A DNA stretch of 64,000 bases from Planococcus donghaensis (GTDB lineage: Bacteria; Bacillota; Bacilli; Bacillales_A; Planococcaceae). The notes below the pieces were generated by a model, which saw only the letters and a list, made by a program, of their open reading frames with translations, was not told the origin of the DNA and did not search any database. Below are positions 15,987 to 63,900 of this stretch, piece by piece (the stretch's first letter is position 1; each line of letters opens with the position of its first letter). Position numbers and translations under genes: made by a program. The stretch spans positions 558,001 through 622,000 of the forward strand of contig NZ_CP016543.2 of NCBI RefSeq assembly GCF_001687665.2. The letters run 5' to 3'.

Positions 15987-16004
15987 GGGGTGTTGACGCT
16001 GTTG

Positions 16005-16108
16005 GACAGTATTTCTCGATATTGGACAGTATTCGGCTCGATTTCGACAGTATTTTATCCAATTCGGACAGTATTTCACCCAATCTCGACAGTATCGCCA
16101 TTAAATGG
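16005..16108. repeat. Short tandem array, core GACAGTATTTC, 20-21 bp period
   Basis: GACAGTAT recurs at 16005, 16025, 16046, 16067 and 16088, spacings 20, 21, 21 and 21. Each core is followed by a variable 10-12 bp tail. The array ends directly at a terminator shared with the convergent gene. Period and layout match the other arrays in this window but the core sequence differs. Confidence 0.85.
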
Positions 16109-16110
16109 AA

Positions 16111-16140
16111 AAAAGCCGCCTAGTTTAGGCGGCTTTTCTT
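16111..16140. terminator. Bidirectional terminator
   Basis: AAAAGCCGCC and GGCGGCTTTT form a stem around TAGTTTA. It lies between the array on one side and the 3' end of the minus-strand reductase gene on the other. Confidence 0.85.
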
Positions 16141-16144
16141 CGTT

Positions 16145-17173
16145 TTATAGCTTTGCAAACTCAGGGTCTGCGACTTTTACTAATTGTTTGCCGAGATTCG
16201 TACCTTTGAACAAGCCAAGGAACGCTTCCGGGGTATTTTCAAAGCCTTCAACAATCGTTTCATCGTATTTCAATTTGCCTTCTTGCAGCCATTGCGTAAG
16301 TGCCGCAACACCTGCGGGTAATTCTTTTGCGTAGTCACCAAGCGTAAAGCCTTTCATCATTGTGCTGGTCCGAATAAACTGACCTTGCATGCGTGGACCA
16401 AGGTCTCCCTCTTCATTGTTATAAGAAGAGATAGCGCCGCACAATGAAATGCGTGCATGTTTGTTTAACTGACGAATCACGGCGTCGGAAATGTCGCCAC
16501 CAACATTATCAAAGTACACGTCAACGCCATCAGGAAGTGCGTTGATCAAGTCTTCTTTAAAGCTGTCTTTTTTGTAATTCACAGCAGCGTCGAACCCAAG
16601 TTCATTGATCAAGTAATCGATTTTATCATCAGAACCGGCGATGCCAACAACGCGCGTTCCTTTAATTTTTGCGATTTGGCCGACAATCGAACCGACAGCA
16701 CCGGCTGCGCCTGAAACAACCACCGTTTCGCCTGCTTGTGGATTCGCAATATCAAGCAATCCAAAATAAGCAGTAAGTCCAGTCAATCCTAGAACACTCA
16801 AGTGTGCCGTAATAGATGCAGCGGTTGGGTCAATTTTTTGCAACTTGCTGGCATTTGCTACATTATATTCAGCCCAGCTAAGATTGCTGCTGACAATATC
16901 ACCTTTTTCAAATAAATCCGAGCGCGATTCGACGACTTCAGCTAATAGACCGCCAGTTAAAGCTTGGTTTAATTCGAATGGAGGGATATAAGATTTTACG
17001 TCTCTCATCCGTCCGCGCATATATGGGTCTACGGATAGGTAAAGTGTTTTTAATAGTACTTCATTTTCTGCGGGTATCGGAATTTCTTTTTCGACAAAAT
17101 TAAAATCATCATTAGTTGGCATGCCTTCTGGGCGGTTCGCCAATTGAATTTCTTTATGTAATTGAGCTGTCAT
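16145..17173 (-). CDS. NADP-dependent MDR-family oxidoreductase (YfmJ/CurA-like)
   Basis: Zinc-independent medium-chain dehydrogenase/reductase of the leukotriene B4 dehydrogenase/curcumin reductase group, which reduces alpha,beta-unsaturated carbonyls with NADPH. GAGGAGGAA lies upstream of the ATG at 17173, so the longer frame to 17236 is not used (342 residues). Features: LANRPEGMPTNDDF at the N terminus, SVDPYMRGRM near residue 50, the nucleotide-binding VVSGAAGAVGSIVGQIA in the middle, and VYFDNVGG. The divergent Old Yellow Enzyme gene also reduces enones, so the pair may be detoxification genes; that is inference. Confidence 0.9.
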   Translation of the reverse strand: MTAQLHKEIQLANRPEGMPTNDDFNFVEKEIPIPAENEVLLKTLYLSVDPYMRGRMRDVKSYIPPFELNQALTGGLLAEVVESRSDLFEKGDIVSSNLSWAEYNVANASKLQKIDPTAASITAHLSVLGLTGLTAYFGLLDIANPQAGETVVVSGAAGAVGSIVGQIAKIKGTRVVGIAGSDDKIDYLINELGFDAAVNYKKDSFKEDLINALPDGVDVYFDNVGGDISDAVIRQLNKHARISLCGAISSYNNEEGDLGPRMQGQFIRTSTMMKGFTLGDYAKELPAGVAALTQWLQEGKLKYDETIVEGFENTPEAFLGLFKGTNLGKQLVKVADPEFAKL

Positions 17174-17354
17174 GAAAAATTCCTCCTCTAGATACGAATT
17201 CGAGAAAAGCGTACCACTCAGATAAAGGGCGGTCAAAAATAATGTACCAAAAAAACGATGCGAGCGCGTATTCTTGATTCCTTAAAATCCGTATGCTATT
17301 TTGAAATACCGATACCTTTCGGAAAAGAAGAGCACGAAGAAAAGAGGAACTTCC

Positions 17355-18479
17355 ATGAAGCCATTATATAAAGAATTGTTTAACGAAATCACTTTGCCAA
17401 ATGGCGTGGTGTTAAACGATCGTCTTGGAGTTGCACCCATGACGACGTATTCAGGAAATGAAGACGGTACGGTTTCTAATGAAGAATTGAGCTATTACAA
17501 TCGCCGTGCAGGTCTCGGCAGTTTATATGTTACGGCGTGCATCGCAGTTTCAGAAAACGGCATTGCGTTCCCCAATCAGTTTATTGGATTTGACGATAGT
17601 GCATTGCCGCGCTTGAAACAGTTGGCAAAAGAGATGAAGTCAAAAGGCAGTAAAGCTATACTGCAAATGCAACATGGCGGTCGCCAGAGCAAGCCTGAAT
17701 TGATTAAGGCAAACGAAACGGTAGCGCCAAGTGCTGTTCCAGGTGAAGTTGGAAAACCAACTCCGCGCGAATTGACTGAAGAGGAAATTTACGCGATTAT
17801 CGAAGATTTTGGTGAAACGACAAGAAGAGCGATTGAAGCAGGCTTTGACGGTGTTGAAATTCACGGAGCGAATACGTATTTGCTTCAGCAATTTGTTTCA
17901 TCCGTGACAAACCAGCGTCAAGATCAATGGGGAGGCACGCTTGTAAATCGCATGAGATTCCCTCTTGCCGTTATGAAAAAAGTTCAAGACACGGTAATCG
18001 AATATGCGGATGAGCAATTTATCGTAGGCTACCGCCTATCGCCAGAAGAAAACAATGAAAAAACGACAGGGTATACAATTGAAGAAACAAAAATATTGGT
18101 GGAAGAATTAATCGACCGTGGCATTCATTATATTCACGTGTCGTTGTTTGAATTTAAGAAAACACCAAAAGGCGCTGAACAAGGCGACAGCATCATTCGC
18201 ATTTTAGCCGATCAAATTAAAGGCCGCGTCCCATTTGTAGCTGTTGGTAGTGTGAAAACACCAGAAGACGCTTTATCGGTCATCGCAGAAGGTGCCGACA
18301 TTGTCGTGATGGGTCGCCAAGCATTGATCGATCCTGAGTGGACGGAAAAAATCAAACAAGGCAAAGAACAAGACATCAATCCTGTGATCAAGCCTAACAT
18401 GGTAGGAACATTAGATATTCCACAAAACATGTGGCACTTAATCACGTCGTACGGCATGGTTACCGTTGCGGACAATTGA
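17355..18479 (+). CDS. NADH:flavin oxidoreductase (Old Yellow Enzyme family)
   Basis: FMN-dependent ene-reductase of the OYE family, resembling B. subtilis YqiG. GAAAAGAGGAA precedes the ATG at 17355, giving 374 residues. Family motifs: LNDRLGVAPMTTYS near the N terminus, LQMQHGGRQSKPE, the VEIHGANTYLLQQFVS block that supplies the substrate-binding His/Asn pair, DQWGGTLVNRMRFP, and VAVGSVKTPEDA with ADIVVMGRQALIDPEW at the phosphate site. It is divergent from the MDR reductase, with a shared 180-base promoter region. Confidence 0.92.
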   Translation: MKPLYKELFNEITLPNGVVLNDRLGVAPMTTYSGNEDGTVSNEELSYYNRRAGLGSLYVTACIAVSENGIAFPNQFIGFDDSALPRLKQLAKEMKSKGSKAILQMQHGGRQSKPELIKANETVAPSAVPGEVGKPTPRELTEEEIYAIIEDFGETTRRAIEAGFDGVEIHGANTYLLQQFVSSVTNQRQDQWGGTLVNRMRFPLAVMKKVQDTVIEYADEQFIVGYRLSPEENNEKTTGYTIEETKILVEELIDRGIHYIHVSLFEFKKTPKGAEQGDSIIRILADQIKGRVPFVAVGSVKTPEDALSVIAEGADIVVMGRQALIDPEWTEKIKQGKEQDINPVIKPNMVGTLDIPQNMWHLITSYGMVTVADN

Positions 18480-18502
18480 TTAATAGTTTGTGAAAACATT
18501 TT

Positions 18503-18540
18503 AAAAAACGCAGTTCCGAAACAATCGGAACTGCGTTTTT
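18503..18540. terminator. Bidirectional terminator between OYE and potassium transporter genes
   Basis: AAAAACGCAGTTCCGA pairs with TCGGAACTGCGTTTTT around AACAA, a perfect stem with A and T runs on either side. Confidence 0.9.
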
Positions 18541-18544
18541 GTGT

Positions 18545-19873
18545 TCACCCCGTAAATACCGGGTCATAAGGATAGCGGTAATTTTCTTTGCGCGGTTTCA
18601 TCAAGATAAAGAACAAGGTTAATGGGCCAATGCGGCCTGTGAACATGACGATACTGAGTAAAACTTCGCCAATGCTTGTCATGTCTCCGCTAATGCCCAT
18701 CGACAAGCCGACAGTTCCAAACGCTGAGACGACTTCAAACGCTAAAGGCAAGAACGGAATCTTTTCGGTAACGGTCAATAGGAACAAGAAAAAAACAACG
18801 AGCAAGACGCTAATCGTCGTGATGGCAAGCGACCGGATGACGGTTTCTAGCCGAATAGAACGGCCGAAAATTTCCGGTTCTCTCCGTGACCGCAAAAAAG
18901 AAAGGGTTGCGAGAATAACTACGATAAATGTGGTCAATTTAATACCTGAAGCGGTTGACGCACTGCCGCCGCCAATAAACATCAACAGCATCGTAAACAA
19001 CAAAGTCGGGTCTTCAAGTGCCCCGTAGTCCAACATATTAAATCCAGCAGTTCGCGGCGTCACGGCACTAAAATAAGACGTCACCAATTTATCAAACAAC
19101 GACATATTGCCGAGCGTTCCGGGATTGTTGTATTCCAATAGAAAAAACACCAACATGGCCAAACTATTTAAAATTAGGGTGCCGCCAACCATTAACTTTG
19201 TGTGCAGAGCCCATCGACGAATTGATTTTTTTTGTGAAACGTCCATAACAACAGTAAAACCAATGCCGCCAATGATGAACAATGAGGAGATCAATATCGT
19301 CACCATTGGGTCGCCAGCAAAACTCATCATGTTGTCAGGGAATAAAGAAAACCCTGCATTATTAAAAGCAGAGATGACATGAAAAATGCTGTAGTTGAGT
19401 GCGTCTTCAAAACCAAATTGGGGAATCCAGTAAATGGTTAGAAGGATTGTTGCGACAGCTTCTACGGTTAAAGCAAACGTCAAAATCAATTTGACGAGCT
19501 TCACGATGCCGCCGATTGAACTTTGTGTGAGTGATTCCTGCAGATAGATACGGTTTTGCAGACCAACTTTTTTGCGAAATAAAATAAGAATCGCGACCGC
19601 AAACGTCATCAAGCCGATTCCGCCGCATTGAATGAGGACAAGAAGAACCAACTCGCCAAAAGCAGTCAGCACAGTGCCAGGGTCAAAGACACTTAGCCCA
19701 GTCACAGTAGTAGCGGATGTAGCCGTGAACAAAGCATCCGTCCAAGAAATCGGTTGGGTAGTGGCGAACGGTAGCTTTAAAAGTAAAGTGCCCACTAAAA
19801 TTAAAAACAAAAAGCTTCCAGAAATCACCAATGGTGGAGAAACGGTCATCCGCTTTTTTCCCCAGGAACGCAT
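18545..19873 (-). CDS. TrkH/KtrB-family potassium uptake protein
   Basis: Integral membrane K+ transport subunit, usually driven with a cytoplasmic RCK regulator (KtrA/KtrC), which is not in this window. The protein (442 residues from the ATG at 19873; GAGGAA lies nine bases upstream, so GTG 19882 is less likely) has about eight to ten hydrophobic segments arranged as four M1-P-M2 repeats. Filter-like loops are visible, for example TATSATTVTGLSVFD near residue 55, the VISAFNNAGFSLF loop, and GGSASTASGIKLTT. Length fits KtrB rather than the longer TrkH. Bacillales often carry two Ktr systems with unlinked subunits. Confidence 0.9.
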   Translation of the reverse strand: MRSWGKKRMTVSPPLVISGSFLFLILVGTLLLKLPFATTQPISWTDALFTATSATTVTGLSVFDPGTVLTAFGELVLLVLIQCGGIGLMTFAVAILILFRKKVGLQNRIYLQESLTQSSIGGIVKLVKLILTFALTVEAVATILLTIYWIPQFGFEDALNYSIFHVISAFNNAGFSLFPDNMMSFAGDPMVTILISSLFIIGGIGFTVVMDVSQKKSIRRWALHTKLMVGGTLILNSLAMLVFFLLEYNNPGTLGNMSLFDKLVTSYFSAVTPRTAGFNMLDYGALEDPTLLFTMLLMFIGGGSASTASGIKLTTFIVVILATLSFLRSRREPEIFGRSIRLETVIRSLAITTISVLLVVFFLFLLTVTEKIPFLPLAFEVVSAFGTVGLSMGISGDMTSIGEVLLSIVMFTGRIGPLTLFFILMKPRKENYRYPYDPVFTG

Positions 19874-20018
19874 GCTAGACACTTCCTCATCTTATAGAAG
19901 TAAAATATGAGCCTACTTTATTCCTGTTTAAAGAAACTGTCAACAAAATAAAAAATTTTTAAAAAAACACTCCAATTAATGGTTTAATCGGAAAAAAACA
20001 AATATTCTATCTAATTAA

Positions 20019-20027
20019 TGGTATAAT
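20019..20027 (+). promoter_or_regulatory. Extended -10 promoter of the TAXI-TRAP operon
   Basis: TGGTATAAT is a TGnTATAAT extended -10 element, 35 bases before the binding protein ATG. No good -35 hexamer is visible, which is usual for extended -10 promoters. Confidence 0.6.
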
Positions 20028-20062
20028 CTCGCTATACTGAAAAAAACTTAGGGGGAAGAAAG

Positions 20063-21043
20063 ATGAAAAAAATGAAAGTAAGTGCATTATCTTTAATGGT
20101 CGCTAGCAGTTTAGCATTAGCAGCATGTGGAGAAGACGAGGCAACACCAACTGAAGGCGGCGGAGAAGCTGAAGGATTAGAAGCAAACCTTGTGACAATC
20201 GCAACGGGTGGAGCATCAGGTCCATACAACATTATTGGTTCGACGCTAGCAGAAACTTATAGTTCTACATATGATGTCAATTCAAGAACGCAAACAACAG
20301 GAGCTTCTGTTGAGAACGTTAACTTGATTAAAGAAGACAAAATTGAAATGGCTTTCACGATGAGTGATGTTGTGAGCCAAGCAGTAGAAGGGACTGAAGG
20401 CTTTACGGAGCCAACGGACAAAATTAGCCAAATCGCTGCTTTATATCCGAACTATGTTCAAATTGTAACGACTGCAGATTCAGGAATTGAAACTTTTGAA
20501 GACTTACGTGGCAAACGAATTGCTGTAGGCGATCAAAACTCTGGAGTAGAAGTAAATGCACGTACTCTTCTCGAAGGTTACGGCATTACGTATGACGATA
20601 TCGATGTGGATTATTTAGGTTATGCAGAAGCAGCTGACGGACTACGTGCCGGCCAAATTGATGCTGCCTTCCTGACAAGTGGTTTGCCAAACGCTTCACT
20701 TCTAGAACTATCAGAAACACTAGACATCCGCATGGTTTCTATTGCACCAGAAGACGTTGAACGTGTGGCGGCAGATAAATCTTACTTCTTACCACTAGAA
20801 ATTCCAGCGGGTACTTATGGTAACGATGAAGCTATTCCAACTGCAGCGATTATGAACGCGTTAGTAGTGCACTCGGATATGAGTGAAGACGATGTTTACA
20901 AATTAACGAAAACTTTCTTTGAAAATCTAGATACGTTAGAAAATGCTCACCAAGCAGCTTCAGATATTTCATTAGAAGCGGCACAAGAAGGACTTGTCGC
21001 ACCGTTACATCCAGGAGCACAGCGCTACTACGATGAACAATAA
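20063..21043 (+). CDS. TAXI-family TRAP transporter solute-binding lipoprotein
   Basis: Extracytoplasmic binding protein of a TAXI-type TRAP transporter, which imports small organic acids or amino acids with a cation gradient; the ligand cannot be read from sequence. The 326 residues start with a lipoprotein signal (lipobox LAAC, Cys22), followed by an acidic linker. The family block VTIATGGASGPYNIIGSTLAE begins near residue 45, and LRGKRIAVGDQNSGVEVNARTLL lies near 150. GGGGGAAG precedes the ATG. It overlaps the next gene, so the operon is tightly coupled. Confidence 0.95.
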   Translation: MKKMKVSALSLMVASSLALAACGEDEATPTEGGGEAEGLEANLVTIATGGASGPYNIIGSTLAETYSSTYDVNSRTQTTGASVENVNLIKEDKIEMAFTMSDVVSQAVEGTEGFTEPTDKISQIAALYPNYVQIVTTADSGIETFEDLRGKRIAVGDQNSGVEVNARTLLEGYGITYDDIDVDYLGYAEAADGLRAGQIDAAFLTSGLPNASLLELSETLDIRMVSIAPEDVERVAADKSYFLPLEIPAGTYGNDEAIPTAAIMNALVVHSDMSEDDVYKLTKTFFENLDTLENAHQAASDISLEAAQEGLVAPLHPGAQRYYDEQ

Positions 21044-21497
21044 GTTTTGGGTAGGAGGAGCATGTTTGATTGTGCTCCTCTTTCTTCTGCTATGGCGGAT
21101 ACCCGTTGTGCAATTTGATTTTGCAAACGAGCGTTATTACTTATCGGAAACAGAGTTTCAGTTACAGTGGATTCATTCTGTTGAAAAAGAAGAATGGCTA
21201 GAATTTTATGAACGCAATGGGGACATGCTTCTTCTAACAGAAACAAAGTTTAAAACCTACGGTGCAGGTGTTCCTTCGGATGGTGAAATCATTTCTTCTG
21301 AAGATGGATTTGTTCATATGAAGATCAATCGTCCATATAAGGAAATGAATTTAACTGTATCCCAAAATGCACAAACAACAATAACAACAGCGAAAAAGAA
21401 CATTCCGTTATACACATACACGGAGGATTATGGGTTCGTGACAATTACGGTTGAATATCTCAATCTATGGGAGTATGTAAGGGGGAACAAACTATGA
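21033..21497 (+). CDS. DUF1850 family protein of the TAXI-TRAP operon
   Basis: A 154-residue protein with one N-terminal membrane segment (FWVGGACLIVLLFLLLW) and a small outer domain containing FQLQWIHSVEKEEWLEFYE, the most typical stretch of DUF1850. DUF1850 genes usually sit between the TAXI binding protein and the fused permease; their role is unknown. The ATG at 21033 lies inside the end of the preceding gene, and the stop overlaps the next start as ATGA. The longer frame from 20994 lies within the upstream gene and is unlikely. Confidence 0.85.
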   Translation: MNNKFWVGGACLIVLLFLLLWRIPVVQFDFANERYYLSETEFQLQWIHSVEKEEWLEFYERNGDMLLLTETKFKTYGAGVPSDGEIISSEDGFVHMKINRPYKEMNLTVSQNAQTTITTAKKNIPLYTYTEDYGFVTITVEYLNLWEYVRGNKL

Positions 21498-23720: not shown

Positions 23721-24140
23721 GAATACGCGCCGTGAGGTGGAGAATACGCGCGTTCTGGCGAAAATACGCACGGTTGAGGGATGTGTACGCACGCTCCGGC
23801 AGAAATACGCGCGAATTCGAAGAATATGCGCGGTGCGAGGGTGCTTATGCGCGTTCCGGCGAAAATACGCACGGTTGAAGGGTGTTTACGCGCGTTCCGG
23901 CAGAAATACGCACGAACTCGAAGAATACGCGCGGTGCGAGGGTGCTTATGCGCGTTCCGGCGAAAATACGCACGGTTGAGGGGTGTTTAAGCGCGCTCCG
24001 GCAGAAATACGCGCGAACTCGAAGAATACGCACGGTGCGAGGGTGCTTATGCGCGTTCCGGCGAAAATACGCACGGTTGAGGGGTGTTTACGCACGCTCC
24101 GGCAGAAATACGCACGAACTCGAAAAATACGTACGCTCTG
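23721..24140. repeat. Array A: GC-rich array with 101-bp higher-order period
   Basis: The string GAAAATACGCACGGTTGA recurs at 23760, 23861, 23962 and 24063, exactly 101 bases apart. Each 101-bp period consists of five modules of about 19-21 bp with alternating cores (TACGCACG, TACGCGCG, TATGCGCG) and different tails (GTTGAGGG, CTCCGGCA, AACTCGAA, GTGCGAGGG, TTCCGGC). The purine-rich and GC-rich base composition differs strongly from neighbouring genes. Both strands contain long open frames that follow the repeat, with no plausible start signals. Confidence 0.95.
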
Positions 24141-30123: not shown

Positions 30124-30383
30124 TGTTGGGTTTTGCGGGATTTTTTTGGGACGCGCGTATTTTTGCCGGAGCGCGCGTAAGTTTCGCGGACCGTGCGTAT
30201 TTTTGCAGGAGCGCGCATAAGTTTCGCGGCGCGTGCGTAAGCTCACCGCGCGTGCATATTTCGCCGGGAGCGCGCATAAGTTTCGCAGACCGTGCGTATT
30301 TTCCCGGGAGCGCGCATAAGTTTCGCGGACCGCGCGTATTTTCCCAGAACCGCGCATAACCCTTAACGCATCGTGCATATCAT
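30124..30383. repeat. Array B: GC-rich array related to array A
   Basis: Starts with a G-run leader (TGTTGGGTTTTGCGGG) and continues as alternating half units GCGCGTATTTTTGCCGGA and GCGCATAAGTTTCGCGGACC, about 20 bp each. GTTTCGCGG recurs at 30181, 30221 and 30320, with a GTTTCGCAG variant at 30280. The half units correspond to the reverse complement of array A modules (GTGCGTATTTTCGCCGG, GCGCATAAGC). No 101-bp period is clear here. Confidence 0.88.
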
Positions 30384-39165: not shown

Positions 39166-39450
39166 GTGTAAAGAGCGGAAAAGTTCATGTAAAGAGATCA
39201 AAAGTTCATGTAAGAGCCGCAAAAGTTAGTGTATAAATCGTGATGTGTGTAAAGAGTGGAAAAGTTCATGTAAAGAGATCAAAAGTTCGTGTAAGAGCGC
39301 AAAAAATTCATGTAAGAGCCGCAAAAGTTAGTGTATAAATCGCGATGTGTGTAAAGAGTGGAAAAGTTCATATAAAGAGATCAAAAGTTCATGTAAGAGC
39401 GCGAAAAATTCATGTAAGAGCCGAAAAAGTTGCTGTATAAATCACAACCC
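39166..39450. repeat. Array with core AAAAGTTCATGTAAAG, 102-bp higher-order period
   Basis: The marker GTGTAAAGAG recurs at 39166, 39247 and 39349 (spacings 81 and 102). A full period has four 21-23 bp modules ending in GTTCAT or GTTAGT plus one 16-base module GTATAAATCGCGATGT. The 81-base period lacks one core module. The core is the reverse complement of CTTTACATGAACTTTT found in the 41.5, 54.7, 55.6 and 63.3 kb arrays. Confidence 0.93.
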
Positions 39451-41474: not shown

Positions 41475-42005
41475 AGGTAGGCCTCTTTATATGAAGTTTG
41501 CCGTCTCTTACACGATGTTTTGAGGCTTATACCTGAACTTTTCGCATCTTTACCGGAATAGCAGGTTATACGTGAACTCTTGGGTTCTTTACATGAATTT
41601 TTCGGGTTTATACCTGAACTTTTAAAGTTTATACCTGAAACTTTTCGCATCTTTACCGGAATAGCAGGTTATACATGAACTTTTGGATTCTTTACATGAA
41701 TTTTTCGGGTTTATACCTGAACTTTTAGCATCTTTACCGGAATAGCAGGTTATACATGAACTTTTGGGTTCTTTACATGAATTTTTCGGGTTTATACACG
41801 AACTTTTAAAGCTTATACCTGAACTTTTAGCATCTTTACCGGAATAGCAGGTTATACCTGAACTCTTGGGTTCTTTACCTGAAATTTTCGGATCTTTACC
41901 AGAACTTTTGGAGCTTATACCTGAACTTTTAGCATCTTTACCGGGATAGCAATTTATACATGAATTTTCGAACTCTTTACCAGAACTTTTAAAGCCTTTA
42001 AAGAA
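41475..42005. repeat. Array with core TATACCTGAACTTTT, 102-bp higher-order period
   Basis: The short odd module TTTACCGGAATAGCAGGT marks the period: TACCGG occurs at 41551, 41654, 41735, 41837 and 41939, spacings 103, 81, 102 and 102. Between markers lie 20-22 bp modules of the type TATACMTGAACTTTTNNNNCT. The 103 results from one extra A and the 81 from one missing module. A minus-strand frame of 137 codons runs through it with a seven-residue periodicity (SGKDAKS-like), a consequence of the 21-bp unit. Confidence 0.94.
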
Positions 42006-54690: not shown

Positions 54691-54720
54691 TGTGTAAAGG
54701 TGGAGTTTTTAAAATCGGTC

Positions 54721-54820
54721 TTTACATGAATTTTCGAGTGCTTTACATGAACTTTTGAAGTCTTTACATGAAGTTTCCAAGCCCTTATACGCATCGGAAC
54801 TTTTACCAGAAATTTGAGTA
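54721..54820. repeat. Short array, core TTTACATGAACTTTT, 21-bp period
   Basis: TTACATGAA occurs at 54722, 54743 and 54764, exactly 21 bases apart, followed by one short module (TTATACGCATCGGAACTT) and a degenerate TTACCAGAAATTTGAG. This is about one higher-order period of the type expanded at 55.6 and 63.3 kb. Confidence 0.85.
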
Positions 54821-54986
54821 TTTTTATCTTTTTGTTTTGAGTTTTCACGTGAAGTTTGATGTTCTATCCACAAGCTATCCAATGCGCGCGTTTATTAACT
54901 CCCAATCAAATCGGGGGACAAGTGTTCTTTTATTGTGTATACTTAGTCTAGTAAATAGCCATATTGAATTTCCAAGGGGTGACTGA
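54821..54986. other. Intergenic region before the MEDS gene
   Basis: AT-rich. A candidate -10 TATACT (about 54939) precedes the MEDS gene, whose ribosome binding site is AAGGGGTGA at 54974-54982. Nothing else was recognised. Confidence 0.35.
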
Positions 54987-55599: not shown

Positions 55600-56020
55600 C
55601 TTTACATGAATAAAATCATCTTATACCCGCACATTTCGAGCTGTTACCTGAACTCTTGGTGCTCTTACATGAACTTTTCACGTCTTAACACGAATCCAAG
55701 CCTTACCAGAAGTATTCGCGTTGTTACCTGCACATTTCGAGCTGTTACCTGAACTTTTGATGCTCTTACCTGAACTTTTCAAGTCTTTACACGAATCAAA
55801 GCTTTTACCAGAAGTTTTCGCATTGTTACCCGCACATTTCGAGCTGTAACCTGAACTTTTGGTGCTCTTACATGAACTTTTAATCTCTTAACACGAATCA
55901 AAGCTTTTACCAGAAGTATTCGCGTTGTTACCCGCATTTTTTGAGCTGTTACCTGAACTTTTGGTGCTCTTACATGAACTTTTCAAGTCTTTACATCAAT
56001 CAAAACATCCTACCAATCTC
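55600..56020. repeat. Array with core TTACCTGAACTTTT, 101-102-bp higher-order period
   Basis: The short odd module (ACACGAATCAAAGCTT) marks the period: its CGAAT lies at 55691, 55792 and 55894, and a TCAAT variant at 55996 (spacings 101, 102, 102). Between markers lie TTACCAGAAGTTTTCGCATTG, TTACCCGCACATTTCGAGCTG, TTACCTGAACTTTTGATGCTCT and TTACMTGAACTTTTCAAGTCT. Each position in the period keeps its own tail, so whole periods have been duplicated. Confidence 0.94.
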
Positions 56021-57517: not shown

Positions 57518-57570
57518 GCACTAATAAGTTCTTCAAGTGAGGAACTTTACTAGTGTTATTTTTTTTATTT
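57518..57570 (+). terminator. Terminator after the epimerase gene
   Basis: GCACTAATAAGTTC pairs imperfectly with GAACTTTACTAGTG around TTCAAGTGAG, followed by TTATTTTTTTT. Confidence 0.8.
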
Positions 57571-57650
57571 AGAATAAATGCCTTTATTTTGAGATAATTA
57601 GGTTTAAGACAATCGCTTAGCGGAAATGACACAGGTAGGGGGGTGACGAA

Positions 57651-57914
57651 TTGACCATAGACGAAAAGTTGATGACTGGAATTCTTAACCGAGAAGAACA
57701 AGCTTTATCCGAATTGTATGACCGTTACCACCGCATACTGTGGAACATTGCACGTCAAAATAATCCAGATCAATCTGTCTGTGAGCAACTCGTCACTCAT
57801 GTGTTTCGAACGGTTTGGACAAAACCTCAAGACTTTATGCAAAATCGCAAACTACTAGCGATGCTGATCGAATGTTGTCAGTCACAAAACATGATTTCAA
57901 CCAATAAAATATAA
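57651..57914 (+). CDS. Orphan sigma-70 region 2 protein (ECF-like), 87 residues
   Basis: The sequence EEQALSELYDRYHRILWNIARQ, followed by CEQLVTHVFRTVWTKPQDF, matches region 2 of ECF sigma factors (the segment that binds core polymerase and the -10 element). The protein stops soon after, with no region 4 in any frame downstream before the MarR gene. The start is TTG 57651 with a strong GGGGGTG seven bases upstream. It could be a decayed ECF sigma factor or a small protein that binds core RNA polymerase. A terminator follows at once. Confidence 0.72.
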   Translation: MTIDEKLMTGILNREEQALSELYDRYHRILWNIARQNNPDQSVCEQLVTHVFRTVWTKPQDFMQNRKLLAMLIECCQSQNMISTNKI

Positions 57915-57920
57915 CCACTC

Positions 57921-57957
57921 AAAACGATTCTTGTAGCTCAAGAGTTGTTTTTTTTTG
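57921..57957 (+). terminator. Terminator after the sigma-like gene
   Basis: AAACGATTCTTG and CAAGAGTTGTTT pair with one mismatch around TAGCT, followed by a long T-run. Confidence 0.85.
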
Positions 57958-57975
57958 TGAATCAACACTTCCAAG

Positions 57976-58004
57976 TTGACCACCCGCCATAAAGAGAGTA
58001 GCTT
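57976..58004 (+). promoter_or_regulatory. Promoter of the MarR-ABC operon
   Basis: TTGACC (57976-57981) with TAGCTT 17 bases later (57999-58004). The -10 is weak; TATAGT at 58004-58009 is better but 22 bases away. Confidence 0.4.
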
Positions 58005-58010
58005 ATAGTC

Positions 58011-58032
58011 AACAGTTCCATTTGGAACAGTT
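58011..58032 (+). promoter_or_regulatory. Palindromic operator, probably for the MarR-family regulator
   Basis: AACAGTTCCATTTGGAACAGTT contains the perfect palindrome GTTCCA-TT-TGGAAC (58015-58028). It lies directly downstream of the promoter and 25 bases before the MarR start, the usual place for autoregulation. Confidence 0.7.
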
Positions 58033-58056
58033 CAGAAACGAAAGATGGTGAAGTAC

Positions 58057-58521
58057 ATGAAAGAACAAGAAACGTATATGCAATTAATGATGTCTTTTGC
58101 CAATGTGCAAAAAAATATGGTGCGTTTTATTCAAAAATCGGCTATGGATAAAGGCTTGTCGATTCCGCAATATTCGATTTTGATGACCATTTCTCATTGC
58201 AGCGAAATGACGCAAAAGACGGTTGGAGAAAAAACCTTTTTACCGAAAAGTACATTGAGCCAAGCGGTAGATGGGCTAGTGAAAGAAGGCTATTTAAATC
58301 GCCAACAAGTGGTATGCAACCGACGGGAAATGATGTTGTCATTGAGTGAAAAAGGACAACAGTTAGTGGATAACTTCCATTCGCAAGAAGACGGGTTGTA
58401 CCAAGTGTTTAAGGCGGCGAGTGAACAATTTACCGCTGAACAAATTAAAGAACTTTTAGACGCTCACCAAAAAATTTCAACCTACTTAACAAGAGTAGAA
58501 TTAGAGGTGACGAACAAATGA
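58057..58521 (+). CDS. MarR-family transcriptional regulator
   Basis: A 154-residue MarR protein with the winged helix segment SQAVDGLVKEGYLNRQQVVCNRREMMLSLSEKG and recognition-helix region TQKTVGEKTFLPKSTL. GGTGAAG lies five bases before the ATG at 58057, so ATG 58045 is less likely. It overlaps the first ABC gene by four bases (ATGA), so it probably represses its own operon and the exporter, and is released by an exported compound. Confidence 0.92.
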   Translation: MKEQETYMQLMMSFANVQKNMVRFIQKSAMDKGLSIPQYSILMTISHCSEMTQKTVGEKTFLPKSTLSQAVDGLVKEGYLNRQQVVCNRREMMLSLSEKGQQLVDNFHSQEDGLYQVFKAASEQFTAEQIKELLDAHQKISTYLTRVELEVTNK

Positions 58522-60242
58522 TCAAAGTGCTAAAAAACTTAAGTCCATATAAATGGATTGTCTGGGGCGTTGTGGCCTTAGTGTTTGCTCAATCGATGGC
58601 AGAACTGTTTTTGCCGACCTTGATGGCGGACATTATTGACAACGGCGTAGTAAAAGGCAATATTCCGTACATTTGGGAAATCGGTGGCTGGATGTTACTC
58701 GTTTCCGCAATCGGTGCTGTGGCATCTGTTTTTGCTAGTTTTTATTCATCAAAAGCAGCGATGGGGCTAGGTCGTGATTTGCGGCAAAAAGTGTTTAAAC
58801 ACGTCGGGCAATTTTCACTTCAAGAATTTGATGAAGTGGGAACGGCCTCGCTCATTACCCGTACTACAAACGATATCAATCAAATTCAGCAAGTTACCAT
58901 TATGATGTTGCGAATGGTGATTAGTGCACCCATTATGTTAGTCGGCGGGATTATTATGGCCGTATCAAAAGATGCGAAACTGTCACTCGTTATTATTGGC
59001 GCGATGCCGGTTTTGGTTATTGCGGTCATGCTGATTTTGAAATACGGGATTCCGTTGTTCCAACAAGTTCAAAAACGGTTAGACGGATTGAACTTGGTCG
59101 TGCGAGAAAACTTAACGGGCATTCGCGTGATTCGCGCGTTTAACCGCGAAACCGAAGAAAAAGCGCGTCTTCAAAAAGCCAATCGGGAATTGGCAGATGT
59201 GTCGATTCGCGTCAACAAAGTTATGGCGTTTATGATGCCGACGATGATGCTAGTGATGAACATGACGGTGGTTGCCGTTATTTGGTTTGGTGGCATTCGG
59301 ATTAGCAATGGTGCGATGCAAATTGGGGACTTGATGGCGTTTATTCAATACGTCATGATGATTATGTTTGCGTTACTGATGGCGTCATTCATGTTTGTGA
59401 TGATTCCACGTGCAGCTGTATCAGCCAAACGTATTAACGAAGTATTGGAAATGCAGCCAGCTTTTAAAGACGATGGCACAGCTAAAGCAGACCGCAATCG
59501 CGGCACGTTGGAGTTTGACAACGTGACGTTTCATTATCCGGGAGCGGAAGAACCGGCATTGTCGAATATTAGCTTTACCGCAAAACCAGGTGAAATCACT
59601 GCGTTGATCGGAGGAACGGGTTCTGGTAAAACAACACTCGTCAATCTCGTGCCGCGTTTTTACGAAGCAACTAGTGGGACTATCCGTGTAAACGGTGTCG
59701 ATATACGCGAAGCTTCGCAACAAGAAATTCGTTCGAAAATTGGTTTTGTGCCACAAAAATCCATCTTGTTTACTGGAACTATCGCAGAAAACATTCGTTT
59801 TGGTAAGCAAGATGCTAGCGACGAAGAAATGAAAAGAGCTGCAAGTACCGCGCAAGCTACGGAGTTTATTGATCAAATCAAAGGCGGCTATGCAGCGCCA
59901 ATCGAACAAGGTGGTTCCAATTTATCGGGCGGTCAGAAACAACGTTTATCAATTGCCCGCGCCTTGATTCGCAAACCAGATTTGTATATTTTTGATGACA
60001 GTTTCTCGGCCTTGGATTTTAAAACAGATGCCAAACTGCGTAAAGCGTTAAAGGATGAGACAAAAAATGCGACGGTGCTTCTAGTTGCACAGCGCGTCAG
60101 TACAGTAGTCGATGCAGATCGCATCATCGTATTAGAAAAAGGCAAAATGGTCGGTATGGGGACGCATAAAGAATTGTTGGAATCCAACAACGTTTATCGT
60201 GAAATTGCCTTATCGCAGCTGTCAGAGGAGGAAATCGCATGA
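58518..60242 (+). CDS. Heterodimeric multidrug ABC exporter, subunit with degenerate site (BmrC/YheI-like)
   Basis: A 574-residue half transporter: six membrane segments (about 1-320) and one ATPase domain. Walker A GGTGSGKTTL and signature LSGGQKQRLSIARAL are canonical, but the Walker B catalytic Glu is Asp494 (YIFDDSF) and the H-loop His is Gln525 (VAQRVST). These changes are typical of one subunit of asymmetric exporters such as BmrCD and TM287/288. The partner follows with an ATGA overlap. Confidence 0.93.
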   Translation: MIKVLKNLSPYKWIVWGVVALVFAQSMAELFLPTLMADIIDNGVVKGNIPYIWEIGGWMLLVSAIGAVASVFASFYSSKAAMGLGRDLRQKVFKHVGQFSLQEFDEVGTASLITRTTNDINQIQQVTIMMLRMVISAPIMLVGGIIMAVSKDAKLSLVIIGAMPVLVIAVMLILKYGIPLFQQVQKRLDGLNLVVRENLTGIRVIRAFNRETEEKARLQKANRELADVSIRVNKVMAFMMPTMMLVMNMTVVAVIWFGGIRISNGAMQIGDLMAFIQYVMMIMFALLMASFMFVMIPRAAVSAKRINEVLEMQPAFKDDGTAKADRNRGTLEFDNVTFHYPGAEEPALSNISFTAKPGEITALIGGTGSGKTTLVNLVPRFYEATSGTIRVNGVDIREASQQEIRSKIGFVPQKSILFTGTIAENIRFGKQDASDEEMKRAASTAQATEFIDQIKGGYAAPIEQGGSNLSGGQKQRLSIARALIRKPDLYIFDDSFSALDFKTDAKLRKALKDETKNATVLLVAQRVSTVVDADRIIVLEKGKMVGMGTHKELLESNNVYREIALSQLSEEEIA

Positions 60243-62065
60243 GCCAAATGGGACCTCCACATGGCGGGGCAAGCATGCCGCCACAAAAAGCAAAAGATTT
60301 TAAAGGCACATTCCGACGCCTGGTTTCGTATTTAAAGCCACGTCGTAAAAAACTGGCAGCCGTCTTTTTAGTTGCCATTCTTAGTACAGTCTTTACGATT
60401 ATCGGCCCGAAAATCATGGGGATGGCCATTACCGAATTGTTTGAAGGAGCTTATGGTCAATTACAAGGTGTACCGGGTGGTGGCATCGATTTTGGAGTTA
60501 TTGGTCAGTTGCTCGCACTTCTTGCCGGATTGTACGTATTTAGTAGTTTGTTTAGTTATATTCAGCAATACATGATGTCGACAGTCGCGCAAGACACCGT
60601 CTACGATTTGCGCCAAGACGTCAATAAAAAACTAGAGAAATTACCACTCAAGTATTTTGACGGACGAGCAAACGGCGAAACGCTAAGTCGTATGACAAAT
60701 GACATTGATACAATCGGCAGCACGTTGCAACAAAGTTTGACGCAATTTATTACGTCGATTGTCACGATTCTCGGGATTTTCGTTATGATGTTAACGATTA
60801 GTCCGCTCCTAACGTTGATTGCCGTTGTCACGCTGCCATTGTCGTTATTTGTTATCGGACCGATTTTGAAAAAATCTCAAAAGTACTTTGCGAGCCAACA
60901 AAAAAACCTTGGCCATCTAAATGGTCACGTAGAAGAAATGTACACCGGTCACCAAGTCGTCAAAGCGTTTGGACATGAAGCAAAATCGAACGAACAATTT
61001 GATGCAGTCAATGAAGAACTATACAACGCCGGGCGTAAAGCTCAGTTTATCTCTGGGATCATTATGCCGATGATGACGTTGATCGGGAACTTGAGTTATG
61101 TCTTGATTAGTATCGTCGGGGGTATTTTAGTTACGCAACGCGCGATTTCGATCGGGGACATTCAAGCGTTTATCACGTATTCCAAACAGTTTACGCAGCC
61201 GATTACGCAAACGGCGAACATCGCCAATATCGTTCAATCAACCATTGCCGCTGCAGAGCGCGTGTTTGAATTGCTGGATGAGGAAGAAGAAGTAAAAGAA
61301 GTGTCCACTTCTGTTCTCGAACGTGCAAAAGGTTCGGTTGTATTTGAAAATGTGAATTTTGGGTATAGCAGTGAGTTGTTGATCGAGAACATGAATATTG
61401 ATGTGTCACCAGGACAAACGGTCGCCATAGTTGGGCCGACCGGTGCTGGGAAAACCACTTTGATCAATTTACTGATGCGTTTTTACGAATTAAATGCCGG
61501 ACGCATTTTAATCGATGGTCTCGATTCGCGTGACATGTCGAGACACGAATTGCGTCAAAACTTTGGCATGGTGTTGCAAGACACATGGCTCTTTAACGGC
61601 ACCATTCGCGACAATATTGCGTACGGCAAAACGGGTGCGACCAAAGAACAAGTGTGCGAGGCGGCAAAAGCAGCACATGCCGATCACTTTATCCGCACGT
61701 TGCCGGACGGCTACGATACGATTTTAAATCAAGAAGTATCGAATATTTCACAAGGACAAAAGCAGTTATTGACCATTGCGCGTGCGATTCTCGCCGATCC
61801 GCCAATTATGATTTTGGACGAGGCAACATCGAGCGTCGATACGCGGACGGAAATCTTTATCCAAAAAGCGATGAACCAATTGATGGACGGCCGCACAAGC
61901 TTTGTTATTGCGCACCGTTTGTCGACCATTAAAGACGCTGACCTGATCCTCGTCATGGATCAAGGGAAAGTTATCGAACAAGGCACACATCAACAATTGC
62001 TAGATAAAGACGGCTTTTACGCCGATTTGTATCAAAGTCAATTTACAGCGAAATTGGCTGTTTAA
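60239..62065 (+). CDS. Heterodimeric multidrug ABC exporter, catalytic subunit (BmrD/YheH-like)
   Basis: A 608-residue half transporter with a Pro/Gly-rich N-terminal tail (PPHGGASMPPQKAKDFKG), six membrane segments and an ATPase domain. Walker A GPTGAGKTTL, Walker B MILDEATSS with Glu528, and H-loop IAHRLST are intact, but its signature reads SQGQ (504-507) instead of SGGQ. So one composite ATP site (from this Walker motifs and the partner's signature) is active and the other degenerate. Probably exports drugs or lipids under MarR control. Confidence 0.94.
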   Translation: MSQMGPPHGGASMPPQKAKDFKGTFRRLVSYLKPRRKKLAAVFLVAILSTVFTIIGPKIMGMAITELFEGAYGQLQGVPGGGIDFGVIGQLLALLAGLYVFSSLFSYIQQYMMSTVAQDTVYDLRQDVNKKLEKLPLKYFDGRANGETLSRMTNDIDTIGSTLQQSLTQFITSIVTILGIFVMMLTISPLLTLIAVVTLPLSLFVIGPILKKSQKYFASQQKNLGHLNGHVEEMYTGHQVVKAFGHEAKSNEQFDAVNEELYNAGRKAQFISGIIMPMMTLIGNLSYVLISIVGGILVTQRAISIGDIQAFITYSKQFTQPITQTANIANIVQSTIAAAERVFELLDEEEEVKEVSTSVLERAKGSVVFENVNFGYSSELLIENMNIDVSPGQTVAIVGPTGAGKTTLINLLMRFYELNAGRILIDGLDSRDMSRHELRQNFGMVLQDTWLFNGTIRDNIAYGKTGATKEQVCEAAKAAHADHFIRTLPDGYDTILNQEVSNISQGQKQLLTIARAILADPPIMILDEATSSVDTRTEIFIQKAMNQLMDGRTSFVIAHRLSTIKDADLILVMDQGKVIEQGTHQQLLDKDGFYADLYQSQFTAKLAV

Positions 62066-62068
62066 CGT

Positions 62069-62099
62069 AAAAAAGGTCCACTTTGGTGGACCTTTTTTA
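62069..62099. terminator. Bidirectional terminator
   Basis: AAAAAAGGTCCAC and GTGGACCTTTTTT pair around TTTG. It closes the ABC operon and the convergent CPBP gene. Confidence 0.93.
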
Positions 62100-62101
62100 T
62101 T

Positions 62102-62908
62102 CTATAATAGAGTTTTTTGCGTTGGCAGCCCGCGCGCAAGCCAATAAATCGCAGCGATCATGAACACGGCACTAACAACTAACATGATGGTATTCGGCAT
62201 GGCTTTCGTATAGATGTCTGTAAAGTTGAATATGGCAACAGATGCAGGCCACTTTGGTGCTAAAAACAGGGAAGCGGCCGCAAGTGAATTATTGATGATG
62301 TGCAAAAAAATCGGGACCAGTAAATTATTGGTGCGCAAATACAAGAGCGAGGCTATCACACCGAACAAAAATGCGCCAATCACATCAAGATGCAACACAC
62401 CAAAAACCAAGCTAGAAAATAAAATACCGCCCCACACCGAAGTTTTACCGATCAAGCGTTTTAACAACACGCCGCGGAACATAAATTCCTCGACCACTGG
62501 CGCTAAAACGGCGATGGTAAAAATCGTAAACGCAATATACCAAGGCGACTCGGGCAGCGGGATTTCTTCTAGCAAAAAGTCAACAAGCCACGGCGCAAAC
62601 GGTGCCAACACATACAGCTGTAGCCAAAACATGCTAAGCGAAAAAGCAATCGACACAGCCACTAACGCAAATAAAAGCGGCAACCATTTCTTGGTGCCAG
62701 TAAGCGATAAAACGTTCCAAACTGAGGCATTGTGTTTTTTGAAATAATAACCAAAATAAAGTCCAGGTACGATAACATACATCACCAACTGGCTGACAAC
62801 GTCAAACGTGATGACGCTGACATTTAGCAACACTAACGTCACCATACTGATTATGGTTCCGATCACCGAATACAAAATCAAATACCGCGCTTTCATTTCT
62901 TCAAACAT
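62102..62908 (-). CDS. CPBP-family intramembrane metalloprotease
   Basis: A 268-residue polytopic membrane protein of the CPBP (CAAX protease/bacteriocin-processing, Abi) family. Motif 1 is the EExxxR-type PVVEEFMFRGVLLKRL; motif 2 is FGVLHLD and motif 3 HIINNSL, supplying the metal-type His. About seven to eight hydrophobic segments. The family includes bacteriocin immunity proteins and intramembrane proteases; substrate unknown. GGCGGTG lies five bases before the ATG at 62908. Confidence 0.92.
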   Translation of the reverse strand: MFEEMKARYLILYSVIGTIISMVTLVLLNVSVITFDVVSQLVMYVIVPGLYFGYYFKKHNASVWNVLSLTGTKKWLPLLFALVAVSIAFSLSMFWLQLYVLAPFAPWLVDFLLEEIPLPESPWYIAFTIFTIAVLAPVVEEFMFRGVLLKRLIGKTSVWGGILFSSLVFGVLHLDVIGAFLFGVIASLLYLRTNNLLVPIFLHIINNSLAAASLFLAPKWPASVAIFNFTDIYTKAMPNTIMLVVSAVFMIAAIYWLARGLPTQKTLL

Positions 62909-63018
62909 GGAGCACCGCCTTTTTAGGTGTCGTAGTAGATTATACGAACGTGAGCGCAGTAAGTTCCAAAAGACGCTATTTTTCGACAGCGGACCTAAAA
63001 CAGCGTATGCTTAAGGTA

Positions 63019-63042
63019 GTTTACCTGACTCCTTTAGGGCAG
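63019..63042 (+). promoter_or_regulatory. Possible sigma-B type promoter of the small charged protein gene
   Basis: GTTTAC (63019-63024) and GGGCAG (63037-63042) are 12 bases apart, close to the sigma-B consensus GTTTAA-N12-15-GGGTAT. It lies 22 bases before the ATG at 63065. The -10 match is partial. Confidence 0.35.
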
Positions 63043-63064
63043 GCAGAACGGAAGGATGATTCAC

Positions 63065-63238
63065 ATGGCATTTCTAGACAAACTCACCCAACTCAAAGAC
63101 AAGTCGATCGAAAAAGGCAGAGCCCATTGGGAAGAAAACAAAGACGACTACAAAGAAAAAGCCACCAACTACAAAGACAAAGCGATGGTCATGAAAGACG
63201 ACGTTGCCAATAAAATAAAAGAAAAAACGAAAAAATGA
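63065..63238 (+). CDS. Small Lys/Asp-rich helical protein, 57 residues
   Basis: MAFLDKLTQLKDKSIEKGRAHWEENKDDYKEKATNYKDKAMVMKDDVANKIKEKTKK-type sequence (start MAFLDKL, then repeated YKEKATNYKDKA blocks), almost entirely charged and predicted helical. It recalls CsbD/YtxH-like or LEA-like stress proteins, but I cannot assign a family. GGAAGGATG lies upstream of the ATG at 63065. A possible sigma-B promoter and its own terminator support a monocistronic stress gene. Confidence 0.7.
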   Translation: MAFLDKLTQLKDKSIEKGRAHWEENKDDYKEKATNYKDKAMVMKDDVANKIKEKTKK

Positions 63239-63246
63239 TGGATCGA

Positions 63247-63280
63247 GTAGCCAAGCTGGTAAAGCTTGGCTGCTTTTTTT
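63247..63280 (+). terminator. Terminator after the small charged protein gene
   Basis: AGCCAAGCT and AGCTTGGCT pair around GGTAA, followed by GCTTTTTTT. Confidence 0.9.
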
Positions 63281-63288
63281 GTGGGGTT

Positions 63289-63900
63289 GTTTTACATGAA
63301 GTTTTGGGGTCTATACGTGAACTTTTGAGAGTTATACACGAACTTTTCAGCTCTTTACCTGAAGTTTTGGAGTTTTAACAGTGATGCCTTCTTTTACATG
63401 AAGTTTTCGAGTCTTTACCTGAACTTTTAGCGTTTTAATAAGGATGCCTACTTTTACATGAATATTTGAAGTCTTTACCCGAACTTTTAAGAGTTATACC
63501 TGAACTTTTGAGATCTTTACCTGAAGTTTTGGAGTTTTAACAAGGATGCGAGTTTTTACAAGAACTTTTGAAGTCTTTACCTGAACTTTTAAGAGTTATA
63601 CCTGAACTTTTGAAATCTTTACCTGAAGTTTTGGAGTTTTAACAAGGATGCGAGTTTTTACAAGAACTTTTGAAGTCTTTACCTGAACATTTGAGAGTTA
63701 TACCTGAACTTTTCAGCTCTTTACCTGAAGTTTTAGCGTTTTAACAAGGATGCCTTCTTTTACCTGAATTTTTGAAGTCTTTACCTGAACATTTGAGCTC
63801 TTTACCTGAACTTTTGGAACTTTAACAGGGATGCGAGTTTTTACCTGAACTTTTCAGCTCTTTACTTAAACTTTTAGCGTTTTAACAGGGATGCCTATTT
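63289..63900. repeat. Long array, core TTTACCTGAACTTTT, n x 21 + 18 bp spacing of odd modules
   Basis: About two dozen 20-22 bp modules (TTACCTGAACTTTTGAAGTCT type) are interrupted by a short odd module ACARGGATGC. The odd module (aligned at the C of CAAGG) occurs at 63379, 63439, 63541, 63643, 63745, 63826 and 63886: spacings 60, 102, 102, 102, 81, 60. All equal 18 plus a multiple of 21. Adjacent modules keep position-specific tails (GGAGTTTTA always precedes the odd module). No gene is visible in the 750 bases after 63238. Confidence 0.95.

What the first reader, a model, noticed from the sequence alone, without database searches (positions are those of the whole stretch)
15990..63900. Intergenic arrays of at least three core families scattered through one 64-kb window
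Eight arrays (16.0, 23.7, 30.2, 39.2, 41.5, 54.7, 55.6, 63.3 kb) occupy about 3 kb, all in intergenic DNA and mostly just after a terminator. Cores: GACAGTATTTC, TACGCRCG/GCGCATAAG, and ACMTGAACTTTT. They contain no cas, transposase or integrase genes and do not interrupt operons. If this density holds genome-wide there would be hundreds of arrays. They may be a new class of chromosomal repeat: nucleoid-protein or domain-boundary sites, transcription-fork barriers, or a self-propagating element.
Basis: partly seen in the sequence, partly recalled or inferred. Interest (0 to 1): 0.85.

Follow-up and report, generated by a model that had tools for sequence, protein, structure and literature searches.

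The report
Five-site DNA arrays between bacterial genes
In a Planococcus-type bacterium, many gaps between genes hold rows of short DNA sites spaced two helix turns apart, often in sets of five; in the family tested, evolution keeps the sites and their spacing but not the letters in between, which suggests that an unknown protein reads them.

Summary
In detail: eight intergenic arrays with the described cores. All three families recur elsewhere on the chromosome, and many arrays recur at the same place in relatives. 'Hundreds' is not supported: an even sample suggests about 58 array-bearing gaps per genome (23-119). The kind is published: non-coding 20-21 nt tandem repeats, several families per species, function unknown (PMC8161180). 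Added here: (1) in one family, between two close species, cores differ at 2% of sites and linkers at 33%, like 4-fold sites (34%), and unit length is kept in 41 of 41 units; cores and spacing look selected, linkers neutral. (2) Five-unit modules: 36 of 49 capped GGACAGTATT elements have five cores; long arrays repeat best at 100-103 bp in 22 of 40, mostly the TACMTGAACTTTT family, less so TACGCRCG. (3) Arrays favour 3' ends of transcription units. (4) One gap can hold a different core in a sister species. RNA structure, REP/BIME, mobile-element and Lrp readings failed or gained no support. Best reading: phased docking sites for a sequence-specific DNA-binding factor, perhaps a boundary or nucleoid complex. 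The factor is unknown.

The parts
16002..16111 (+). GGACAGTATT array: five cores 20-21 bp apart, the last in the capped form CGACAGTATCGCCATTAAATGGAAA, between convergent genes
23724..24138 (+). TACGCRCG array, units 19-21 bp, higher-order repeat of 101 bp (five units), 3.8 copies
30152..30380 (-). TACGCRCG array in opposite orientation (CGCGCGTATTTT on + strand), unit 20, between convergent genes; TRF gives a 99-bp higher-order repeat, but the best long lag is 40 bp
39167..39443 (-). TACMTGAACTTTT array (AAAAGTTCATGTA on + strand), unit 21, higher-order 102 bp
41488..42001 (+). TACMTGAACTTTT array, unit 21 with one 18-bp unit per module, higher-order 81/102 bp
54718..54857 (+). short, degenerate TACMTGAACTTTT array; by eye the G008 and G027 orthologous gaps hold only one or a few degenerate units
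55602..56004 (+). TACMTGAACTTTT array just after a terminator, higher-order 102 bp (4 x 21 + 18); the corresponding gap holds TACCCGTGTGTT units in G027 and AACCCGGGTGTTCG units in G010
63290..63896 (+). TACMTGAACTTTT array after a terminator, higher-order 102 bp, same place in G007 and G008

Best explanation
Each array is a phased row of DNA binding sites for a sequence-specific DNA-binding factor. A site is a conserved core of about 13-16 bp; sites repeat every 20-21 bp (two helix turns), so all face the same side; in two families the usual module is five sites (about 100-105 bp). Shown: core and spacing conservation with neutral linkers (one family, one species pair), the five-unit module and its 3' cap in the GGACAGTATT family, 102-bp higher-order repeats in the TACMTGAACTTTT family, preference for 3' ends of transcription units, persistence at the same loci in relatives, and gain, loss or core change in one gap. 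Inferred: that a protein binds (rather than RNA acting), that adjacent sites assemble one nucleoprotein complex, helped by T-tracts repeating every 10-11 bp in two families, and that this complex marks or insulates the boundary between transcription units (stopping read-through or holding the nucleoid). The factor, and whether each core family has its own, is unknown.
For: Core v linker: 12 orthologous GGACAGTATT arrays of G000 and G007: core positions 8/360 differ, shoulders 28/180, linker 71/216, unit length same in 41/41; 4-fold sites of 35 genes 1481/4326. Array-free gaps show 0.060 gap events per substitution (14 gaps), which predicts about 6 small length changes for the 107 substitutions in the units; none was seen. 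Per-position information: about 13-16 informative and 4-8 near-zero positions in three families, with 56/56, 140/147 and 14/14 units distinct (units were picked by their core, so only the shoulder-linker contrast is free of that choice). Five units: 36 of 49 capped elements (11 of 14 in G000, 12 of 14 in G007); best long lag 100-103 bp in 22 of 40 long arrays. The cap occurs without mismatch in 5 of 7 relatives searched for it. Position: arrays per gap, convergent v divergent: G000 9/107 v 5/118, G007 6/25 v 5/24 (hardly different), others 16/55 v 1/54; in codirectional gaps nearer the upstream stop in 20/23, 11/13 and 11/16 (stretches partly chosen for arrays). TT steps recur at 10-11, 21 and 31-32 bp in two families. 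RNA folding is near background on average.
Against: No factor was identified. AsnC/Lrp regulators gave no match in G000 or in carriers G003, G021, G027, G033 and G039, and HU occurs in all 46 genomes, including the 16 without GGACAGTATT pairs. The five-unit module is not general: TACGCRCG arrays have best long lags of 40, 80-82, 100-101 and 120-121 bp, and that family lacks the 10-11 bp T-tract pattern. Linkers of capped elements are not wholly free: two positions show a weak preference that depends on the unit's place (about 0.5-0.9 bit). A few arrays fold better than shuffles (z below -3 on one strand or both). Orientation follows no single rule relative to genes. Arrays occur in divergent gaps too, and 32 of 77 had no terminator-like hairpin pointing in. 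The selection test covers one family and one species pair, and orthologues were located through their cores, so decayed arrays would be missed.
Confidence: 0.6

Rival explanations
1. Selfish or mutational satellites: slippage, unequal crossing-over and gene conversion make and spread arrays with a preferred 20-21 bp step; the host gains nothing, and arrays collect in 3' gaps because they are harmless there.
For: Higher-order repeats show local amplification; array size and unit number differ between species; a 186-bp array segment occurs three times in tandem in G007; presence is patchy, 16 of 46 genus genomes have no GGACAGTATT pair.
Against: Duplication and conversion copy core and linker alike, yet cores are kept and linkers drift at the 4-fold rate with fixed length.
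Confidence: 0.17
2. Arrays are transcribed and act as RNA: a sponge or guide with a repeated single-stranded motif.
For: Bacterial satellites have been reported as transcribed: the 52-nt repeats of B. coagulans (PMC8161180; PMC8625621, passages). A few arrays fold with z below -3.
Against: On average little structure: 46 capped elements, mean z -0.50 and -0.66 on the two strands (below -2 in 6 and 5); 48 array rows of G000, mean -0.76 and -0.73. No Rfam match in the arrays. Orientation does not follow the genes. A fixed 20/21 step is not expected of an unstructured RNA.
Confidence: 0.1
3. BIME-like supercoil relief: arrays at 3' ends recruit gyrase or topoisomerase to absorb the supercoils that transcription leaves behind.
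For: Position at transcription-unit 3' ends; phased T-tracts; module length near the DNA length that gyrase wraps (recalled).
Against: Gyrase has little sequence specificity (recalled), which does not explain a nearly invariant 10-bp core or several core families; 16 of 46 genus genomes have no GGACAGTATT pair.
Confidence: 0.08
4. Mobile element (MITE or terminator-targeting insertion) whose ends are the array and the cap.
For: GGACAGTATT arrays have a recurrent start and 3' cap and occur at many loci.
Against: No inverted repeats of 10 bp or more in the eight window arrays; no Y1 transposase match in G000 (other transposase families were not searched genome-wide); no match in plasmids, phages or viral contigs for the queries used; linkers differ between loci; the one gap compared shows erosion by units, not a clean empty site.
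Confidence: 0.05

Closest known systems
Non-coding 20-21 nt tandem repeats ('satellites') of Bacillus and other bacteria (Subirana and Messeguer, PMC8161180; their J Bacteriol 2020 paper is not held)
   Same: Unit of 20-21 nt, several families per genome, restricted to a species or genus, a characteristic short motif in the repeats, non-coding, function unknown
   Different: Here: core v linker contrast pointing to selection on core and spacing, five-unit modules in two families, a conserved 3' cap, 3'-end preference, a different core in the same gap of sister species; none of these is mentioned in the parts of that paper that I read (1-4 of 5)
BIME/REP elements of enterobacteria
   Same: Intergenic, at 3' ends of transcription units, many per genome, arrays of short units (general features recalled)
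   Different: Head-to-tail direct repeats, no inverted repeats of 10 bp or more, no Y1 (RAYT-type) transposase match in this genome
Iteron arrays and phased multi-site operators (recalled)
   Same: Direct repeats of about 21 bp with conserved core and free linker on one helix face
   Different: Dispersed at tens of chromosomal gaps; no replication initiator among the 17 neighbouring proteins scanned
CRISPR arrays
   Same: Conserved repeat plus variable spacer of fixed length
   Different: Unit of 20-21 bp with a variable part of only 4-8 bp, no cas domain among the 17 neighbouring proteins scanned, dispersed

Membership tests
Non-coding 20-21 nt bacterial tandem repeats (Subirana and Messeguer) | Repeat unit of constant size, 20-21 nt | tested here: met
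   lag 21: 108 segments, lag 20: 12, lags 19, 23, 25: 0; small peaks at some multiples of three (7 or fewer each up to lag 36). A separate class of about 120-bp repeats also exists in the genome.
Non-coding 20-21 nt bacterial tandem repeats (Subirana and Messeguer) | Non-coding, intergenic | tested here: met
   120 of 156 periodic segments lie under 40% in predicted genes, 36 do not; most of these I take for codon repeats, but a few are arrays overlapped by a predicted gene, not checked one by one; overlapping loci count one array twice
Non-coding 20-21 nt bacterial tandem repeats (Subirana and Messeguer) | Several families per genome, same size, different sequence, each with a characteristic short motif | tested here: met
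REP/BIME | Palindromic units in alternating orientation | tested here: not met
   0 inverted-repeat pairs of 10 bp or more in the eight window arrays
REP/BIME | RAYT (Y1) transposase in the genome | tested here: not met
   0 PF01797 matches in G000; 29 of 46 genus genomes have one
CRISPR | cas genes beside the array and spacers long enough to target | tested here: not met
   no cas domain in 17 neighbouring proteins scanned; variable part 4-8 bp. The whole genome was not scanned for cas genes.
MITE/insertion sequence | Terminal inverted repeats and target-site duplication | tested here: inconclusive
   no inverted repeats of 10 bp or more; I found no clean empty site, so no duplication could be scored
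Sites of an Lrp/AsnC-type wrapping protein | An Lrp/AsnC protein in the carrier genome | tested here: not met
   0 PF01037 matches in G000 and in carriers G003, G021, G027, G033 and G039
Sites read by a sequence-specific DNA-binding protein | Direct binding to the core | not testable with these tools
   needs pull-down, EMSA or footprint

The most novel reading that the evidence does not exclude
The arrays are a bacterial boundary system with a common chassis (sites 20-21 bp apart, usually five to a module) and interchangeable core 'codes', each read by its own member of an unrecognised family of DNA-binding factors. Such complexes would insulate neighbouring transcription units, as insulators do in eukaryotes, and a gap could change code between species while keeping the chassis.
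Probability: 0.17. Interest if true: 0.85.

Novelty: new variant of a known kind. Interest (0 to 1): 0.6.

Why it matters
Non-coding bacterial tandem repeats of constant size have been an unexplained observation. Here one family shows conserved cores, neutral linkers, fixed spacing and a capped, usually five-site module, which turns 'function unknown' into a concrete experiment: a DNA bait with five GGACAGTATT sites against the same bait with scrambled cores or a 16-bp step, in extracts of a Planococcus that carries the arrays and of one that lacks them. The 30 carriers and 16 non-carriers of this family among 46 genus genomes also allow a search for the factor by gene presence and absence.

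Tried and rejected
Literature, listings only: 0 papers; 2 papers, neither about this; 380 papers, 20 listed; 944 papers, 15 listed; 25 papers on REP/BIME and gyrase, 10 listed; none opened. A search for core letters (48 papers hold at least one of three strings, 15 listed) showed no listed title about such arrays. The published class was found. RNA structure: not supported on average; a hairpin at the cap looks good in single elements (about 3145.6 kb) but is not general. Lrp/AsnC wrapping protein: rejected by gene absence. HU alone: one or two copies in all 46 genomes, so it does not explain who carries arrays. REP/RAYT: rejected. Plasmid, phage or virus origin: no match (one array and two patterns as queries). 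Rfam at gathering threshold: only a SAM riboswitch in the window. Symmetric placement about the origin: the listed TACMTGAACTTTT hits lie at about 597-624 kb and 2524-2622 kb (683-781 kb from the origin on the other arm; the lists are capped), suggestive, not tested. Rheinheimera (2) and a marine MAG (1) among the 7 stretches: two-copy matches, dropped. Strand rule: none seen.

Rows dropped before counts. Core/linker test: 12 pairs; one search printed 14. Left out: 463590 (double array) and 2440420 v 2386450 (judged not orthologous); for 1794080 v 1549860 I replaced the G000 member by 1495080, whose flanks match better. Capped elements: of 56 rows, 49 passed the filter; two loci are counted twice there (3142293/3142272 and 3194394/3194373), 3145618 is called one unit early, degenerate first cores count as cores, and orthologues in different species count apart. 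In G000, 14 capped elements stand against roughly 23 GGACAGTATT places; the rest lack a cap that my filter accepts.

Full report
What was checked. The window is bases 558001-622000 of a 3,305,371-base contig whose first gene looks like dnaA; GC skew changes sign between the stretches at 1.66 and 1.744 Mb, so the terminus is near there. The genus is probably Planococcus: relative G008 has a contig of 158,296 bases, the same length as a Planococcus halocryophilus HM12 record that carries the arrays.

More than chance. Over 1.64 Mb (window plus 80 fetched loci, partly chosen for arrays), segments with at least 60% self-match over 63 bp number 108 at lag 21, 12 at lag 20, 3 at lag 22 and 0 at lags 19, 23 and 25; further peaks are at 42 (73), 60 (29), 40 (17) and 41 (16), and a few (7 or fewer each up to lag 36) at some multiples of three. 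With a looser threshold there are 156 periodic segments, 120 mostly intergenic and 36 overlapping predicted genes (genes by a home-made caller; one array is counted twice through overlapping loci).

How many. The even sample of twenty 20-kb stretches has arrays in 7 gaps, one of them overlapping a predicted gene by 55%; this gives about 58 per genome, 95% 23-119. The window, with 8 arrays in 64 kb, is a dense patch. The listed TACMTGAACTTTT hits lie at about 597-624 kb and 2524-2622 kb (lists capped); GGACAGTATT arrays are spread over the chromosome.

Relatives. TACMTGAACTTTT sites (up to 1 mismatch) occur in 14 of 46 genus genomes; more than 12 only in G007 (119), G000 (102), G008 (45) and G027 (24). 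GGACAGTATT pairs 21 bp apart (up to 2 mismatches) occur in 30 of 46 genus genomes with 0 control hits in all 46, and in 4 of 204 sampled genomes of other genera of the family, with 1-2 hits each. G007, a close relative, has arrays of the same family at closely similar coordinates on the right arm.

The unit. In G000 the GGACAGTATT family (56 units, all distinct, 11 five-kb bins) has about 15 informative positions and six linker positions at 0.05-0.2 bit. TACMTGAACTTTT (147 units, 140 distinct, 10 bins) has about 16 informative positions and four at 0.03-0.31 bit. TTGTTTGCGGGAT (14 units, 4 bins) has about 13 and eight at 0.08-0.28. Units were picked by their core, so the core's own height is partly built in; shoulders and linkers are not. 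In capped elements two linker positions show a weak preference that depends on the unit's place in the module, about 0.5-0.9 bit.

Selection. In 12 orthologous GGACAGTATT arrays of G000 and G007, core positions differ in 8/360, shoulders in 28/180 and linker positions in 71/216; unit length is the same in 41 of 41. Four-fold degenerate sites of 35 genes differ in 1481/4326, 34%, so linkers drift like neutral sites; array-free gaps differ at 12% of sites (14 gaps). Those gaps show 0.060 gap events per substitution, which predicts about six small length changes among the 107 substitutions seen in the units; none was seen. Four of the 12 pairs differ in the number of recognised cores. Limits: one family, one species pair, orthologues located through their cores; the core letters that my finder left free (positions 3, 8 and 9) differ in 3/108.

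The five-unit module. Capped GGACAGTATT elements end in GGACAGTATaTCCAaaTAActGGaAA. Of 49, 36 have five cores, 7 four, 4 three and 2 six; spacings are 21 (149), 20 (33) and 19 (1) (two loci are counted twice, orthologues count apart). Per genome: 11 of 14 in G000 and 12 of 14 in G007. The cap pattern is matched exactly in 5 of 7 relatives searched for it (G008, G009, G010, G027, G033); G023 and G045 match only with 1-2 mismatches, where ordinary units match too, and four of the seven had 1-3 control matches. In 40 arrays of at least 230 bp the best long lag is 100-103 bp in 22, 204-206 in 3, 80-82 in 5, 40-42 in 4, and others in 6. In the window this is 4 x 21 + 18 = 102 for TACMTGAACTTTT and 21+20+19+21+20 = 101 for the TACGCRCG array at 23.7 kb, read. 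TACGCRCG arrays elsewhere have best lags of 40, 80-82, 100 or 120-121, so five units is the rule in two families and only one option in the third.

Where they sit. Arrays per gap, convergent v divergent: G000 9/107 v 5/118; G007 6/25 v 5/24, hardly different; other genomes 16/55 v 1/54. In codirectional gaps arrays lie nearer the upstream stop in 20/23, 11/13 and 11/16 (stretches partly chosen for arrays). A terminator-like hairpin points into the array in 45 of 77 cases, against 79 of 379 random intergenic points. Neighbouring genes have unrelated functions: luciferase-like monooxygenase, dehydrogenase, TRAP transporter, PTS, SIS domain, ABC-2 permease, amylase and others.

Turnover in place. 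The gap after the amylase gene (window 54650) holds two arrays around a small gene in G000 and G007; the first is nearly gone in G008 and G027; G027 carries a TACCCGTGTGTT array, G010 AACCCGGGTGTTCG units, G037 and G016 CTACATGAC-type arrays, and G044 none (read by eye). So a gap can keep an array while the core changes.

What it probably is. Conserved cores, neutral linkers and a fixed two-turn step are what rows of protein-binding sites on one face of DNA would look like. Two families also place TT steps every 10-11 bp, which may help bending; TACGCRCG does not. RNA structure is near background on average (46 capped elements, mean z -0.50 and -0.66; a few arrays below -3), and no array matches Rfam at gathering threshold. 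The factor is unknown: AsnC/Lrp proteins gave no match in this genome, and HU is in all 46.

What is known. Subirana and Messeguer describe non-coding 20-21 nt and 52 nt tandem repeats in 176 Bacillus genomes, with several families per species, constant size, a characteristic short motif, unknown function, and nucleoid-protein or small-RNA ideas (PMC8161180, parts 1-4 of 5 read). Their 2019 overview was seen as abstract and outline only, their 2021 transcription paper as passages, their 2020 J Bacteriol paper not at all. The kind is therefore known; the core/linker contrast, five-unit modules, cap and core change are not mentioned in what I read.

Noticed in passing
window:7712-7816 (+): SAM riboswitch (RF00162, 86.3 bits), the only Rfam match in the window at gathering threshold.
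   Followed up: no
G000:C1:1504507-1504801, 1512678-1513052 (L014), 2337458-2337832 (L019), 2747735-2748026 (L042): A different tandem repeat class of about 120-126 bp; the first three share a segment like GCTCCGAC.GGCATAAGAC.
   Followed up: no
L016 (1835-1837 kb), L028 (627.9, 629.1 kb), L029 (759 kb), L035 (1751 kb), L039 (2413 kb): Further 21-bp core families in the same genome: TTGTTTGCGGGAT / CGCAAACAA and CGCACCTCAAC.
   Followed up: partly
G000 near 463.7, 2440.5 and 2490 kb; G007 near 2602 kb: A recurring palindrome of the type GGAAAGCGC..GCGCTTTCC sits between or beside GGACAGTATT arrays.
   Followed up: no
G000 at about 558-638 and 2490-2725 kb: These array-rich stretches are slightly GC-richer (about 0.42-0.43) than most others (about 0.38-0.41); but the stretches at 0 and 166 kb are as GC-rich and have no array.
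   Followed up: no
G007:C1:2602123-2602633 (L080): Three very similar capped GGACAGTATT arrays in tandem with their flank, 186 bp apart: a local duplication.
   Followed up: partly
G000 whole genome: No AsnC/Lrp-type regulator match, unlike 37 of 46 genus genomes.
   Followed up: no
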